Assembly: GCF_000155595.1 (NCBI RefSeq)
Contig: NZ_DS989904.1
Coordinates: forward strand, 1,875,175-1,939,174
DNA length: 64,000 nucleotides
Reading direction: 5' to 3'
Origin: Synechococcus sp. PCC 7335
GTDB lineage: Bacteria > Cyanobacteriota > Cyanobacteriia > Phormidesmidales > Phormidesmidaceae
The position numbers were made by a program, and so were the translations under genes. How positions within the stretch are numbered: position 1 is the stretch's first letter; the number at the start of each line of letters is the position of its first letter. Shown piece after piece: positions 27,507 through 31,557 of this stretch. Under the pieces are notes generated by a model, which worked only from the letters and a program-made list of their open reading frames with translations, did no database searches and had not been told where the DNA came from.

Positions 27507-27756
27507 ACGAATTCGCGTCATTCTGCATTGACGCTACCTCTGCCCGGTTCTGCTCAGCTAGCTTGTAATACCATTCACAATAGTCTGCAAACGCCTGTCG
27601 ATGCGCTGCTTCTCGTTGAAAGTCAATAGCAGCCTGATGTAGCTGTAGTGCTTCGCTAACCTCTCTGACTTCAGCAGAGCGCGGCACCAAATATTCAAAC
27701 ACAGCGCGTTGATGGATGCCTAGATGATTGACATCCGGCTTGATACTATCGGTCAT
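27475..27756 (-). CDS. Small conserved hypothetical protein
   Basis: 93 residues, soluble, mainly helical, with no recognised motif (HQRAVFEYLVPRSAEVREVSEAL, then WYYKLAEQNRAE). The start ATG overlaps the stop TGA of the upstream YdcF-like gene (ATGA at 27753-27756), so the two are likely translationally coupled. The 3' end overlaps rsmB by 32 nt in the opposite direction. No function can be given. Confidence 0.6.
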   Translation of the reverse strand: MTDSIKPDVNHLGIHQRAVFEYLVPRSAEVREVSEALQLHQAAIDFQREAAHRQAFADYCEWYYKLAEQNRAEVASMQNDANSFMWWRGAASL

Positions 27757-28544
27757 GCCCAGCCTCGAAGTCGATAAATTACAAACCCTACATATTCTTT
27801 CATCGCCCTTGTGAACCGCCCAGTCGCTTCAGCTCGGGGTAGCAAAGACAGAATCCGCCCTTCAATCGTAATCTCCCCCGACTCATCTGAGGGCGTTGTA
27901 ACGAGATAATCTGTGGGAGCTGGAATGACGTCAATATCGAGCTTTTGAAAGATGGCGACAGAGCGGGGCATATGCACTGCAGAAGTGACTAGCAACACAG
28001 AGTCGATTGATTGCGCGGCTAGAATCTTTTTGACGTTCACTGCATTTTGCCGGGTGTTGAGTGAAGTCTCCTCCAAAATGATGTCTGCTTCAGGTACGTT
28101 CATTGCCATCGCAAACGCTTTCATATCGTCTGCTTCAGACTCATCACTGCCGCCACGCCACTGCACCCGGCCGCCGCTGAGGATTAACTTTGGCGCTCGA
28201 CCCTGATTGTAAAGTCTAGCGGCATAGAGAATGCGATCGCCTGCTTCTGAGACTTCTACCCAAGGCCGTGGTGCGATCGCTGGTACAGTCGCTCCACCCA
28301 ATACCACAATCGCATCGGCTGTGGGCACTGGGTCGGGTGGAAAGTAGCGCCACTCTAATGAACTGAGCAGTTTGTTGCTGACGATAGGGTTGCTGCTGAA
28401 GAAAAGGATAAATAAGGCAAGCGCGATCGCGCCCGAGGCCCGCCGAGGATGACGCCACAGCCAGACTAGCCCTAGCATCATCAACAAGCTACTAAGCCCC
28501 ACAGGATAAACAAACAGAGGAAGCAGCTTAGACAGGAAAAACAT
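27753..28544 (-). CDS. YdcF/ElyC-family (DUF218) membrane protein
   Basis: 263 residues. Two N-terminal transmembrane helices (LLPLFVYPVGLSSLLMMLGL and GAIALALFILFFS) precede a DUF218 domain: DAIVVLGGATVPAI, LYNQGRAPKLILSGG, EETSLNTRQNAVNV, VLLVTSAVHMPRSVAIF. E. coli ElyC of this family affects envelope and peptidoglycan precursor metabolism, and vertebrate relatives include SanA. The exact reaction is unknown. It is the first gene of a two-gene unit with the 93-residue unknown (ATGA overlap). Confidence 0.85.
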   Translation of the reverse strand: MFFLSKLLPLFVYPVGLSSLLMMLGLVWLWRHPRRASGAIALALFILFFSSNPIVSNKLLSSLEWRYFPPDPVPTADAIVVLGGATVPAIAPRPWVEVSEAGDRILYAARLYNQGRAPKLILSGGRVQWRGGSDESEADDMKAFAMAMNVPEADIILEETSLNTRQNAVNVKKILAAQSIDSVLLVTSAVHMPRSVAIFQKLDIDVIPAPTDYLVTTPSDESGEITIEGRILSLLPRAEATGRFTRAMKEYVGFVIYRLRGWA

Positions 28545-28589
28545 AAAATTTGTGGAGTAATGGCAAATAGCGCTGCATGGGTAGACGAT

Positions 28590-29012
28590 CTACTTCCTCT
28601 GTCGCCGGGCTCGGGCCCGCTTCTGACGCTCTATATAGCGCCGATTGGCTTTGTTAGTCTTTAGAAAGGGCAGCTCCAAGTATGGATTGCCCGAGTCGTT
28701 TGGGTTCGGGCGTTTGAGCTTGTTGGTAGGCGGGAGTCCTGCTGGATCCTTTGGCGCTCCTCCCTTCATTTGCCACCAGCCGGTCGCGATGCCACCGGCT
28801 AAGCCACCGATTGCACCATATAAAATACTAAAGGGCACTGAATAGCCCAACAAGAAGATGATGATGAGAAAGATCAGCCAGGTTCTAACAGCTGCTGGAA
28901 TGATCAAATCAATCACGGCGGCAAATCCTGTATTGGGCGAAGGCAAGAGGGTGGTGGCGTGCCGATACATACTCAAAGCGAAGTCTATGCCTACATATGC
29001 CACCAGTCCCAC
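28590..29012 (-). CDS. Conserved membrane protein with basic C-terminus
   Basis: 140 residues. It has a hydrophobic N-terminal half with probable helices (VIDLIIPAAVRTWLIFLIII, then LGYSVPFSILYGAIGGLAGG) and a basic, Pro/Lys/Arg-rich cytosolic tail ending RQKRARARRQRK. Such an arrangement is seen in a group of cyanobacterial proteins of unknown role. The basic tail might bind nucleic acid or lipid head groups. The stop lies 45 nt upstream of the YdcF gene on the same strand, so co-transcription is possible. Confidence 0.65.
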   Translation of the reverse strand: MGLVAYVGIDFALSMYRHATTLLPSPNTGFAAVIDLIIPAAVRTWLIFLIIIFLLGYSVPFSILYGAIGGLAGGIATGWWQMKGGAPKDPAGLPPTNKLKRPNPNDSGNPYLELPFLKTNKANRRYIERQKRARARRQRK

Positions 29013-29122
29013 TTATTGTTTATGAGGTGGTTGAACAGTAGGGCAAAGTTCAGCCAAGTGCAATTCAGATAGGTGACAAGCGCTATAAAAGTCAGCGCTC
29101 CAAATATATCAGCTTTTTTCTA

Positions 29123-29659
29123 TCAGCTTTTTTTCTGGCCCTGATCCCATTCCAAAAGTGAATCGAAGACACGGCACAGTTGCTGCTGAATCTCAGCGAT
29201 TGGCTTGGTCGTATCAACTACTACTACCGGATCTGTTGGGTCGAAAGGTTCCATAGACTGCTTTGCTAGGATTGTCGCAGTCGCGTCGGCAATATCGCCA
29301 CACCGCTGTTCTACCCGCGCTTTCAAGACCTCAGGCGGCGCGGTGCAGTGCAAGAAAGTGAGCGGGAGATCTTGAGCAGCCGCTTTGGCGATCGCCTCTG
29401 TCCTTTTTGCCTGTCTATCAAACTTTGCATCCAATATCACCCGATAGCCCCGGGCTGCTAGCTGCACACCTAGATCGATGAGCCGAGTGTATGTCTTATT
29501 CGTCATCGCAGCGGTATAGATCTCATCGCTGCCTTTCTCATGCAAGCCAATTCCTGCGAGATGTTTACGCACCGCATCCGAGCGCAGACGAATAGCACTG
29601 GCTAGCTTTACTAGCTGATTAGCTGTCGTGCTTTTACCTGAGCCCGATAGCCCACACAT
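29123..29659 (-). CDS. P-loop kinase (COG0645-like), split partner of upstream gene
   Basis: 178 residues. MCGLSGSGKSTTANQL is a Walker A motif at the very N-terminus. The rest follows the gluconate-kinase-like fold (RLRSDAVRKHLAG, GYRVILDAKFDRQAKR, TAPPEVLKARVEQRC). In many bacteria this domain is fused C-terminally to an aminoglycoside-phosphotransferase-like domain. Here the upstream gene ends 5 nt before this ATG and in another frame. Adding one A to the A10 run at 29677-29686 would fuse them: the upstream frame would read through AAIVAM into CGLSG. It may therefore be one gene with a frameshift, or expressed by slippage. Confidence 0.8.
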   Translation of the reverse strand: MCGLSGSGKSTTANQLVKLASAIRLRSDAVRKHLAGIGLHEKGSDEIYTAAMTNKTYTRLIDLGVQLAARGYRVILDAKFDRQAKRTEAIAKAAAQDLPLTFLHCTAPPEVLKARVEQRCGDIADATATILAKQSMEPFDPTDPVVVVDTTKPIAEIQQQLCRVFDSLLEWDQGQKKS

Positions 29660-29664
29660 CGCGA

Positions 29665-30741
29665 CTATGGCCGCTCTTTTTTTTTTACATAGGACCAGGC
29701 TAGCTTATAGTACTTAGCCGCTTTCTCGCTAGCGGCCTTTTGATCTGCTTCAGATACAGAAGGATCGCCCAGCATAAAAGAAGTGACTTTTGCTCGCACG
29801 TAGGACTGACGACTGACATACAGGGGCAAAATCTCTAGCCCTTCGTAGTCGCCTGTTGCCTCAGCGTATTGATTCAAGAAGACTTGACTAAGGTCGTGTC
29901 GACCTGCGACTTCTAAGTCCATGACGATATAGGCAATATCGAACATCGTATCGACGAAGCGGAAAGGCTCATTGAATTCAATACAGTCAAAGAGTAAGAT
30001 CTTGCCTTCCCATTCGCAGATATTGCCAAGATGCAAATCGCCGTGGCAAGCGCGTATTTTATCGGCATCTAGCCGCTTTTGAAAAAGGGCTTGTTCAGTT
30101 TCAAAGAAGCTGTCTGTGTAGGCTTTAGTTTCGTCAAACTGCTGCTGGGTTTGAGGTTTGGTGATCTCGTTGCCGCCAATGTAGGCAGTGGTCTGTTCGT
30201 AGTTTTCATCAAATGCCTGACGAATAGCGGCTGGGGTACCATAGCTGCGGATATGGTCGCTAGTAGCGGTTTGGCTGTGAAACTCAGCGACGGTTTGGGC
30301 AAGCGATCGCACCTTCTCTTCATCCAACAGTCCCCTGGCGAACTGCTCGCTAAGCAGCGCTGACTGTGGAAACTGTTGCATCTTTACCGCATATTCGATC
30401 GGTTCACCATTGCCATCGATCTGTGCTCTACTCGTTTCTGGGCTACTTATTTCTGGGCTACCTGCCGCCTCAGTAATTGCCACGACCTCTAGATACAAAT
30501 CCCCCGCACCTCGCTGATTTAACCGCAGCTCTTCTTCACAAAAATGCTTGCGTTTCTCTAATGTGGAATAGTCTAGAAACCCAAAGTTGACCGGCTTTTT
30601 CAACTTGTAGACATAGTCCCCAGTCAGCAGCACATACGACACGTGAGTCTGCATTAGGCGAATAGGTTCAACCACCGGATGCTGATAGAAATCCGGCGCG
30701 AGCATTTGCTGAACTAGCGTGGGTAAAGTGGAATCAGGCAT
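29665..30741 (-). CDS. Aminoglycoside-phosphotransferase-like kinase (COG2187-like)
   Basis: About 358 residues from ATG 30741; the further upstream start at 30840 is unlikely because it lies in the rplY terminator. APH/choline-kinase fold: VSYVLLTGDYVYKLKKPVNFG near the N-terminus, ACHGDLHLGNICEWEGKILL with the catalytic Asp, FDCIEFNEPFRFVDTMFDIAYIVMDLE with the metal-binding Asp. The phosphate acceptor is unknown. The protein ends at a poly-Lys stretch read from the A10 tract, then ERP and stop. The kinase gene follows immediately; the pair normally forms one polypeptide. Confidence 0.8.
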   Translation of the reverse strand: MPDSTLPTLVQQMLAPDFYQHPVVEPIRLMQTHVSYVLLTGDYVYKLKKPVNFGFLDYSTLEKRKHFCEEELRLNQRGAGDLYLEVVAITEAAGSPEISSPETSRAQIDGNGEPIEYAVKMQQFPQSALLSEQFARGLLDEEKVRSLAQTVAEFHSQTATSDHIRSYGTPAAIRQAFDENYEQTTAYIGGNEITKPQTQQQFDETKAYTDSFFETEQALFQKRLDADKIRACHGDLHLGNICEWEGKILLFDCIEFNEPFRFVDTMFDIAYIVMDLEVAGRHDLSQVFLNQYAEATGDYEGLEILPLYVSRQSYVRAKVTSFMLGDPSVSEADQKAASEKAAKYYKLAWSYVKKKERP

Positions 30742-30815
30742 AGTTTCTAAAAGTAGGCAGAAATAGTTTCTACAAGTTAGGTAGATAAAGCTGTCAACTC
30801 CTAATAGCAAACAAA

Positions 30816-30845
30816 AGGGGCTAGGAATTTTATCTCCCAACCCCT
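30816..30845 (-). terminator. Rho-independent terminator of rplY
   Basis: On the minus strand AGGGGTTGGGA pairs with TTCCTAGCCCCT, followed by TTTGTTTGC. It lies about 60 nt past the rplY stop, and separates rplY from the APH-like gene. Confidence 0.82.
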
Positions 30846-30906
30846 CTTAATTTCCAAAAGCAAGCTGTTTAGAATTGGCCTACAGAGTAGGCTTTCATCG
30901 TAAGTC

Positions 30907-31557
30907 TCAATTAGCTGTGTTGATGTCTTCTTCAACATTGAGTGTTTCTGTCGGCGTTGCTTCAGGCACCTCTCCTGAGGCTGCTTCAACCGCGGCGGCA
31001 GTACGAGGTGCTAGCACTGATACTACCAACAGGCTAGGTTCTACTGTCACGGATGTACCTTTGGGCAACTTAATTTCACCGACATGTAGCGCATCGCCGA
31101 TCTTCAGCTCAGAAACATCTACATCTAGCGACTGAGGGATCGCATCAGGTGGACACTTTAGCTGGATTTCAGTCATCACGGTATCAAGCGTACCGCCTTC
31201 GTCAGTCACACCAACCGCGTCCCCAACGAAGTTGATTGGCATACTAACTTCAATTTCTGACTGCGAAGCAATTGAGAAAAAGCTGAGGTGGTGAAGCTTA
31301 TTTTTCCAAGGATGCTTTTGTACCTCGCGCAAAATCACTTTGCCGCTCCAGGGCACATCAGGTACGTTAACGGTAATCACTGACTTATTTACCGAGGCTT
31401 TGCGCAAAAGGGCTTCAGCGTCGTAGTTGCTGAGCTTCAACGGAAGAGAGTTGGCCCCATCATGTCCGTATAGGACGGCGGGTAGTGTGCCTTCTCTACG
31501 AAGTCTTTTGGGCTTGTCTTCCGGCGCGCGCTGAGCGCATTCAATTGATAGATCCAT
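30907..31557 (-). CDS. rplY: 50S ribosomal protein L25, long (CTC) form
   Basis: 216 residues. The N-terminal L25 domain (LRREGTLPAVLYGHDGANSLPL) binds 5S rRNA, and the C-terminal TL5-like beta domain (INFVGDAVGVTDEGGTLDTV, LHVGEIKLPKGTSV) is the usual extension. An Ala/Glu/Thr-rich tail ends the protein. It is a component of the large ribosomal subunit. It is monocistronic with its own terminator. The start MDLSIECAQRAPEDKPKRLR agrees with the family. Confidence 0.93.
   Translation of the reverse strand: MDLSIECAQRAPEDKPKRLRREGTLPAVLYGHDGANSLPLKLSNYDAEALLRKASVNKSVITVNVPDVPWSGKVILREVQKHPWKNKLHHLSFFSIASQSEIEVSMPINFVGDAVGVTDEGGTLDTVMTEIQLKCPPDAIPQSLDVDVSELKIGDALHVGEIKLPKGTSVTVEPSLLVVSVLAPRTAAAVEAASGEVPEATPTETLNVEEDINTAN

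What the first reader, a model, noticed from the sequence alone, without database searches (positions are those of the whole stretch)
29123..30741. Normally fused kinase pair split by an A10 tract
On the minus strand the APH-like frame reads through an A10 run (29677-29686) then hits TAG; one extra A would continue as AAIVAM into the P-loop kinase. The two domains are commonly one protein in bacteria. This is either a sequencing or true frameshift, or transcriptional slippage making both split and fused products.
Basis: partly seen in the sequence, partly recalled or inferred. Interest (0 to 1): 0.65.

Follow-up and report, generated by a model that had tools for sequence, protein, structure and literature searches.

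The report
Conserved A-tract splits a fused kinase
In one group of cyanobacteria, a gene for a two-part kinase is interrupted at the joint between its parts by a run of nine or ten A's, a kind of site that copying machinery is known to slip on; the interruption is kept in five species, so it looks like a built-in way to make both a short and a full-length protein rather than a sequencing error.

Summary
In detail: an A10 run (29677-29686, minus strand) separates an APH-like ORF (29665-30741) from a P-loop kinase in the -1 frame. It is very unlikely to be a sequencing error or decay. All 7 held genomes of the genus carry the gene. Five have A9/A10 in the same inter-domain linker with the kinase out of frame; two are fused in frame without a run. 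Outside the genus, 46 of 48 matching family genomes have one open frame of 500+ aa and 2 are cut by contig ends. The five form one clade (99/98), so a fused ancestor probably gained the run once. Synonymous sites are mostly near saturation, yet the out-of-frame kinase stays under purifying selection. Two other A9/T9 runs of this genome are only 4-8 long in relatives. In four of five species one extra A restores fusion and a TAG follows the run by 7-9 nt; RL_2_1 departs, on a contig with a second frameshift in rplY. Best explanation: programmed transcriptional slippage making APH-only plus fused kinase; -1 ribosomal frameshifting may contribute or replace it. No RNA or protein data were available. 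New member of a known kind.

The parts
29665..30741 (-). APH-like (phosphotransferase-fold) ORF, zero frame, ends at TAG just after the A10 run; the predicted short product
   Evidence: Pfam APH E 1.8e-4, 21.8 bits, below the 23.2 cut-off; N-terminal part of the fused BC1307 homologue's model matches mycobacterial maltokinase, Z 17.8, rmsd 3.8, 277 aligned
29677..29686 (-). A10 run, proposed slippage site in the inter-domain linker
   Evidence: orthologous A9/A10 in four other species
29665..29667 (-). zero-frame TAG, 9 nt after the run; TAG lies at the same aligned position in all five species although the overlapping kinase-frame codon differs (ATA, ATA, TTA, TTA, CTA). In RL_2_1 as deposited this TAG is not in the zero frame
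29123..29680 (-). P-loop kinase (AAA_33) coding region in the -1 frame; reached by +1 A in the transcript or -1 ribosomal shift
   Evidence: Pfam AAA_33 E 4.3e-25; kinase part of the BC1307 model closest to gluconate kinase, Z 18.5, rmsd 2.4, 156 aligned, tied with APS kinases
29657..29659 (-). ATG inside strand beta-1 of the kinase; unlikely to be a real separate start
   Evidence: equivalent of M355 in the BC1307 model, where beta-1 is residues 351-356

Best explanation
A bifunctional enzyme (APH-fold kinase fused to a GntK/APS-kinase-like P-loop kinase) acquired a poly-A run in its inter-domain linker, out of frame, in the ancestor of one clade of Phormidesmis-type cyanobacteria. RNA polymerase slipping on the A9-A10 run adds A's to a fraction of transcripts. 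Unslipped mRNA makes the APH domain alone, ending at the TAG just past the run; mRNA with one extra A makes the full fused enzyme. The gene therefore has two outputs in a set ratio. Shown: the run, the offset (4 of 5 species alike), the stop, single-clade conservation, and constraint on the kinase frame. Inferred: that RNA polymerase (rather than mainly the ribosome) slips, that both products are made, and that the ratio matters.
For: Same-position A9/A10 in 5 of 7 genus genomes, none of the five in frame. One clade, 99/98, in 100% of 200 bootstrap trees. Within the tract clade the kinase has pS 0.62-0.84 and pN/pS 0.21-0.37, against 0.24 for the two fused genus members, so the out-of-frame part is still selected as a protein. 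No second copy in the genome. The run is the longest homopolymer of the gene in all five; in the two fused relatives none exceeds 6. 85 distinct junctions without the tract have at most 7 A's in a row. Two other runs of this genome, ruvC T9 and bioD A9, are in frame and kept at 9 in 0 of 6 and 0 of 5 relatives with an orthologue. Indels in such a run could easily put the fusion back in frame, yet 0 of 5 species have that. TAG is retained at the aligned position in 5 of 5. No Shine-Dalgarno-like element or stem-loop is seen to be common to the five (by eye), as reported for the proven poly-A slippage gene tssM1 (PMC4256274, passages). A9 or T9 runs suffice for slippage in bacteria (PMC5009743, passages).
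Against: No RNA-seq, proteomics or reporter data. The five are one clade, so the retention is one phylogenetic event, not five; with only 5 tract and 2 fused labels, 78 of 500 label shuffles are as clustered. Some short A runs also persist: two A5-level sites are shared by 4 of 5 tract species, and A7 matches are in excess in the window, 27 against 12.6 expected. RL_2_1 has A9 with the other offset (-1 or +2 A) and a zero frame open for 107 nt more; its rplY also breaks frame at a T run, so an assembly error is likely but not shown. All-A runs also contain -1 ribosomal slippery heptamers, so sequence alone cannot separate the two mechanisms.
Confidence: 0.65

Rival explanations
1. Programmed -1 ribosomal frameshifting: tandem Lys-tRNA slippage on A_AAA_AAA/G within the run moves a share of ribosomes into the kinase frame; transcript length is unchanged.
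For: My reading of the junctions: A_AAA_AAA is in phase in all five, and a -1 shift leads into the kinase in four. LEGE 11477 has an AGGA-type purine stretch before the run. E. coli dnaX uses A_AAA_AAG (passages in PMC3711429 and PMC5009743).
Against: No internal Shine-Dalgarno or stem-loop common to the five is seen (no formal covariance test). A run of 9-10 is longer than a heptamer needs, and long runs are what RNA polymerase slips on. RL_2_1 as deposited cannot be served by -1 shifting.
Confidence: 0.22
2. Phase variation: replication slippage changes the run length so that lineages switch between fused (on) and split (off).
For: Poly-A runs mutate in length; 9 and 10 are both seen, and RL_2_1 has another offset.
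Against: 0 of 5 species are in frame (chance 0.13 if three phases were equal and independent) and 4 of 5 share one offset (chance 0.045 for four or more in that named phase; own arithmetic, after the fact, ignoring relatedness). Enzyme without obvious surface role, unlike typical phase-variable genes.
Confidence: 0.07
3. The two halves are now separate proteins: translation ends at TAG and restarts at the kinase ATG a few bases on.
For: In the window the kinase ATG is 5 nt past the TAG.
Against: That ATG is a Met also present in nearly all the fused homologues printed; starting there drops 4 of 6 beta-1 residues. No Shine-Dalgarno is evident by eye in front of it. It would not explain conservation of the run.
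Confidence: 0.04
4. Sequencing/assembly error or a decaying gene.
For: Homopolymers are error-prone; RL_2_1's contig shows a second frameshift in rplY; coverage labels in the record titles are low for RL_2_1 (3.07) and LEGE 11477 (4.52).
Against: Five separate assemblies share the run at the same linker with different flanks, and the two fused genus members do not have it; the kinase keeps low pN/pS.
Confidence: 0.02

Closest known systems
Citrobacter rodentium tssM1 (A11; PMC4256274, passages seen)
   Same: poly-A run upstream of a zero-frame stop; extra A's give the full-length protein; short and long forms; no accessory signals reported
   Different: A11, a type VI secretion gene, with 20-25% frameshifting measured; here a chromosomal two-kinase enzyme, nothing measured, but conserved in a clade of five species
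Thermus thermophilus dnaX (run of nine; passages in PMC5009743, PMC3711429)
   Same: homopolymer slippage yields two protein lengths from one gene
   Different: there the longer product is the zero frame; here the longer product needs the slip. The two-ORF dnaX genes, nine of them with 10 A's, predicted in PMC3711429 have a layout like this one
IS-element transposases with A8-A10 (incl. Nostoc PCC 7120; PMC1088944, passages)
   Same: A8-A10 run in a cyanobacterium, in genes commonly made of two ORFs
   Different: mobile element; here an enzyme gene with neighbours partly conserved (rplY, YdcF/ElyC-like)
Fused APH / P-loop kinase ('bifunctional aminoglycoside phosphotransferase/ATP-binding protein'; this link, COG2187 plus COG0645 and Rv2004c are recalled names)
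   Same: domain order, linker, P-loop GLSGSGKS; one frame in the family relatives
   Different: linker carries an out-of-frame A9/A10 run in this clade only, as far as searched
chlD programmed frameshift (PMC9227772, abstract only)
   Same: one gene gives two subunits by frameshifting, in a chlorophyll gene
   Different: translational signal and another protein

Membership tests
genes with programmed transcriptional realignment (slippage) | A/T homopolymer of about 8-9 or more at the frame junction | tested here: met
   A9 or A10 in 5 of 5 split genes
genes with programmed transcriptional realignment (slippage) | conserved protein on both sides in different frames, retained across species | tested here: met
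   one clade of five species; kinase pN/pS 0.21-0.37
genes with programmed transcriptional realignment (slippage) | same frame offset in all members | tested here: inconclusive
   4 of 5 need +1 A (or -2); RL_2_1 needs -1 or +2, on a suspect contig
genes with programmed transcriptional realignment (slippage) | transcripts of heterogeneous A-run length | not testable with these tools
   no RNA data held
-1 programmed ribosomal frameshifting | slippery X_XXY_YYZ in the zero frame leading into the second ORF | tested here: inconclusive
   heptamer in phase in 5 of 5 by direct reading, but a -1 shift reaches the kinase in 4 of 5
-1 programmed ribosomal frameshifting | stimulatory Shine-Dalgarno or downstream structure | tested here: inconclusive
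   window z-score -1.19; five single-sequence folds look unlike each other; AGGA-type stretch in LEGE 11477 only; no covariance test
phase-variable homopolymer locus | on and off lengths among strains | tested here: inconclusive
   0 of 5 in frame; one genome per species only
fused APH / P-loop kinase family | P-loop kinase domain (AAA_33) | tested here: met
   E 4.3e-25, 89.1 bits against cut-off 27
fused APH / P-loop kinase family | APH-fold N-terminal domain | tested here: inconclusive
   Pfam APH 21.8 bits, under the 23.2 cut-off; fused BC1307 homologue gives 19.5 bits; but its model's N-terminal part matches maltokinase (Z 17.8, rmsd 3.8, 277 aligned) and glucosamine kinase (Z 17.1, rmsd 3.6, 260 aligned)
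fused APH / P-loop kinase family | both domains in one open frame | tested here: not met
   split by frame in the window and in 5 of 7 genus members in all

The most novel reading that the evidence does not exclude
Slippage at the run is conditional: the share of full-length bifunctional kinase depends on the state of RNA polymerase (temperature, NTP levels), so that these cyanobacteria, some of them from polar or cold habitats (recalled), use a homopolymer as a sensor that sets the ratio of a one-kinase to a two-kinase enzyme.
Probability: 0.12. Interest if true: 0.78.

Novelty: new member of a known kind. Interest (0 to 1): 0.5.

Why it matters
The bacterial poly-A slippage genes met in the passages seen here are secretion genes, dnaX, IS elements and endosymbiont genes; a clade-conserved site in an ordinary chromosomal enzyme would add to a short list. 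Fused sister species without the run serve as natural controls, and the test (RNA reads over ten bases) is simple. It also warns that annotation may call such genes pseudogenes or two genes (inference; annotations were not looked at). It gives a handle on an uncharacterised two-kinase family: if the reading is right, the clade gains something from making the APH half alone.

Tried and rejected
Reading the whole gene with a four-letter code was useless, because the word matched many in-frame AAA codons. Downstream RNA structure as a -1 frameshift stimulator: window z-score -1.19 and no visible common fold in five species; not favoured, not formally tested. Looking for other slippage genes among the A9+ sites of this genome: of the five other sites, three lie in frame inside ORFs (ruvC-like, bioD-like, a 182-aa ORF; names from my reading), one near the 5' end of an ExbB/MotA-like frame and one in an 86-aa frame; none splits a gene visibly. 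The five A8 runs in the window each lie in one frame of over 100 aa that stays open across the run, so no second case. The shorter frames in G012 and G080 were checked and are contig ends. Short stand-alone matches were left aside as remote paralogues: G044 (31% identity, E 1.4e-4) and five second matches (26-29% identity). Sequence searches of the PDB gave one weak hit for the kinase and none for the APH part. Functional literature: search listings only; no title on enzymatic activity of the fused family was seen, one on Rv2004c as an antigen.

Full report
What is there. On the minus strand an APH-like ORF (30741-29665) reads through an A10 run at 29677-29686 and stops at a TAG that begins nine bases after it; a P-loop kinase follows in the -1 frame to 29123. 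The kinase half matches Pfam AAA_33 (E 4.3e-25); the first half matches APH just under the curated cut-off. There is one match to the kinase in the genome (6.0 Mb in 11 contigs). The run is the only A9+ site in the window, which by itself is within chance.

Relatives. Of 58 genomes drawn as relatives, 50 matched the kinase half. In the family 55 of 63 matched: 5 have a short kinase frame (176-233 aa), 48 (2 in the genus, 46 outside it) have an open frame of 500 aa or more, and 2 (G012 386, G080 423) are cut by contig ends. A search with the full fused protein over the same 63 genomes agrees: the five give two separate matches each. All five are in the window's genus, where 7 of 7 genomes match. 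By identical junction DNA G001-G005 correspond to the named records P. priestleyi Ana, LEGE 11477, Leptolyngbya BC1307, RL_2_1 and ULC027bin1; G003 (BC1307) and G006 are fused. A sample of 388 genomes of the class gave 294 with matches at E <= 1e-15; in the part of the match table that was printed the only split genes are the same five (the rest of the table was not listed; frames of 386 aa in G012 and 426 aa in G295 are long enough to reach well into the APH part, G295 not followed up).

The junction. All five split genes have A9 or A10 in the linker just before the P-loop, with different flanking sequence. The scripted frame check shows that the window, LEGE 11477, ULC027bin1 (A10 each) and P. 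priestleyi Ana (A9) all need one extra A (or two fewer), with the zero-frame TAG 9, 7, 7 and 8 nt past the run. RL_2_1 has A9, needs one fewer or two more, and its zero frame runs on 107 nt. Its record title gives coverage 3.07, though LEGE 11477's gives only 4.52, and its rplY, about 1.8 kb away, changes frame at a T run, so I suspect a short homopolymer call but cannot show it. In the alignment TAG sits at the same position in all five while the kinase-frame codon it overlaps is ATA, ATA, TTA, TTA or CTA; the fused relatives have no TAG there. In the window's long open frames ATA is 12% of Ile codons and TTA and CTA 13% and 26% of Leu codons, so this is only modest extra evidence that the stop is kept.

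Age and selection. A maximum-likelihood gene tree of 42 rows puts the five in one clade (support 99/98; 100% of 200 bootstrap trees), inside a family of fused genes: one gain from a fused ancestor is the simplest history. The fork joining the clade with the two fused genus members is open, and 78 of 500 label shuffles among the seven are as clustered. Pairwise synonymous differences within the tract clade are 0.56-0.84 per site over both halves (the window against LEGE 11477 is the closest pair; the rest are 0.67 or more), while the kinase has pN/pS 0.21-0.37, overlapping the fused pair's 0.24. The kinase half therefore still works as a protein, although plain reading of the DNA does not join it to a start other than the ATG inside beta-1.

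Is the run itself kept? It is the longest homopolymer of the gene in all five species, and the two fused relatives have none above 6; two A5-level sites are shared by 4 of 5 tract species, so short runs can persist too. In 85 distinct junctions without the tract (tract loci, exact duplicates and two loci without the motif dropped) the longest A run is 2-7. As a control I followed two other runs of this genome. A T9 in ruvC is 5, 5, 7, 5, 4 and 4 in the six relatives (lengths read), and an A9 in bioD is 8, 6, 6, 6 and 4 in the five relatives with an orthologue (ULC027 gave only a weak match). A9+ sites number six in the whole genome (8 overlapping matches), against about 87 matches if the window's shuffles are scaled up (rough arithmetic); A7, by contrast, is in excess in the window (27 against 12.6). 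Homopolymers change length easily, and a change of one or two A's would give an ordinary in-frame fusion; none of five species has it. This is the strongest argument that the out-of-frame state is favoured.

Structure. A model of the fused BC1307 protein (26-row alignment; mean pLDDT 92.6, pTM 0.91) has an APH-like part ending in a helix at 343 and kinase strand beta-1 at 351-356; the run falls in the linker between. The kinase's in-frame ATG corresponds to M355, so an independent start there would lose four of six beta-1 residues. Closest folds are gluconate kinase (Z 18.5, rmsd 2.4, 156 aligned), tied with APS kinases, for the second part, and mycobacterial maltokinase (Z 17.8, rmsd 3.8, 277 aligned) and glucosamine kinase (Z 17.1, rmsd 3.6, 260 aligned) for the first (a shared fold does not give the substrate). 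The enzyme may phosphorylate a sugar-like metabolite; this is a guess.

Mechanism. A run of nine A's or T's is enough for RNA polymerase slippage in bacteria (PMC5009743, passages); in tssM1 an A11 run gives 20-25% frameshifting with no accessory signal found (PMC4256274, passages). The arrangement here is alike, and no Shine-Dalgarno or stem-loop common to the five was visible. The run also holds A_AAA_AAA in phase in all five, and a -1 shift reaches the kinase in four, so ribosomal shifting could add to or replace it. I put transcriptional slippage first at 0.65, and the two forms of programmed shift together at about 0.87. That two products are made, and that the ratio matters, is inference.

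Novelty. The kind is known (poly-A slippage making two lengths of a protein). In the searches named under Tried and rejected I found no report for this gene family or genus. The clade-wide conservation in a chromosomal enzyme, with fused sister species as natural controls, is the point of interest.

Noticed in passing
L034 about 1166 (RL_2_1, JAAUPS010000100.1): rplY (ribosomal protein L25) of this MAG is read in two frames, changing at a T run; probably an assembly error, and it bears on the odd A9 offset of the same contig.
   Followed up: partly
G000:C1:1244404-1244412 and G000:C1:2782828-2782836: ruvC-like and bioD-like genes of this genome hold in-frame T9 and A9 runs that are shorter in the six and five relatives with an orthologue; possible unprogrammed slippage sites.
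   Followed up: yes
genus-wide (G000-G006): The number of A9 matches differs sharply within the genus: 8 in the window's genome, 56 in G001 of about the same size.
   Followed up: no
window 27753-31557: The order rplY - kinase gene - 140-aa protein - YdcF/ElyC-like gene is kept in three tract-bearing relatives (LEGE 11477, RL_2_1, Ana) and, on a shorter contig without rplY, in ULC027; in fused BC1307 only rplY was found within the 3 kb flanks.
   Followed up: partly
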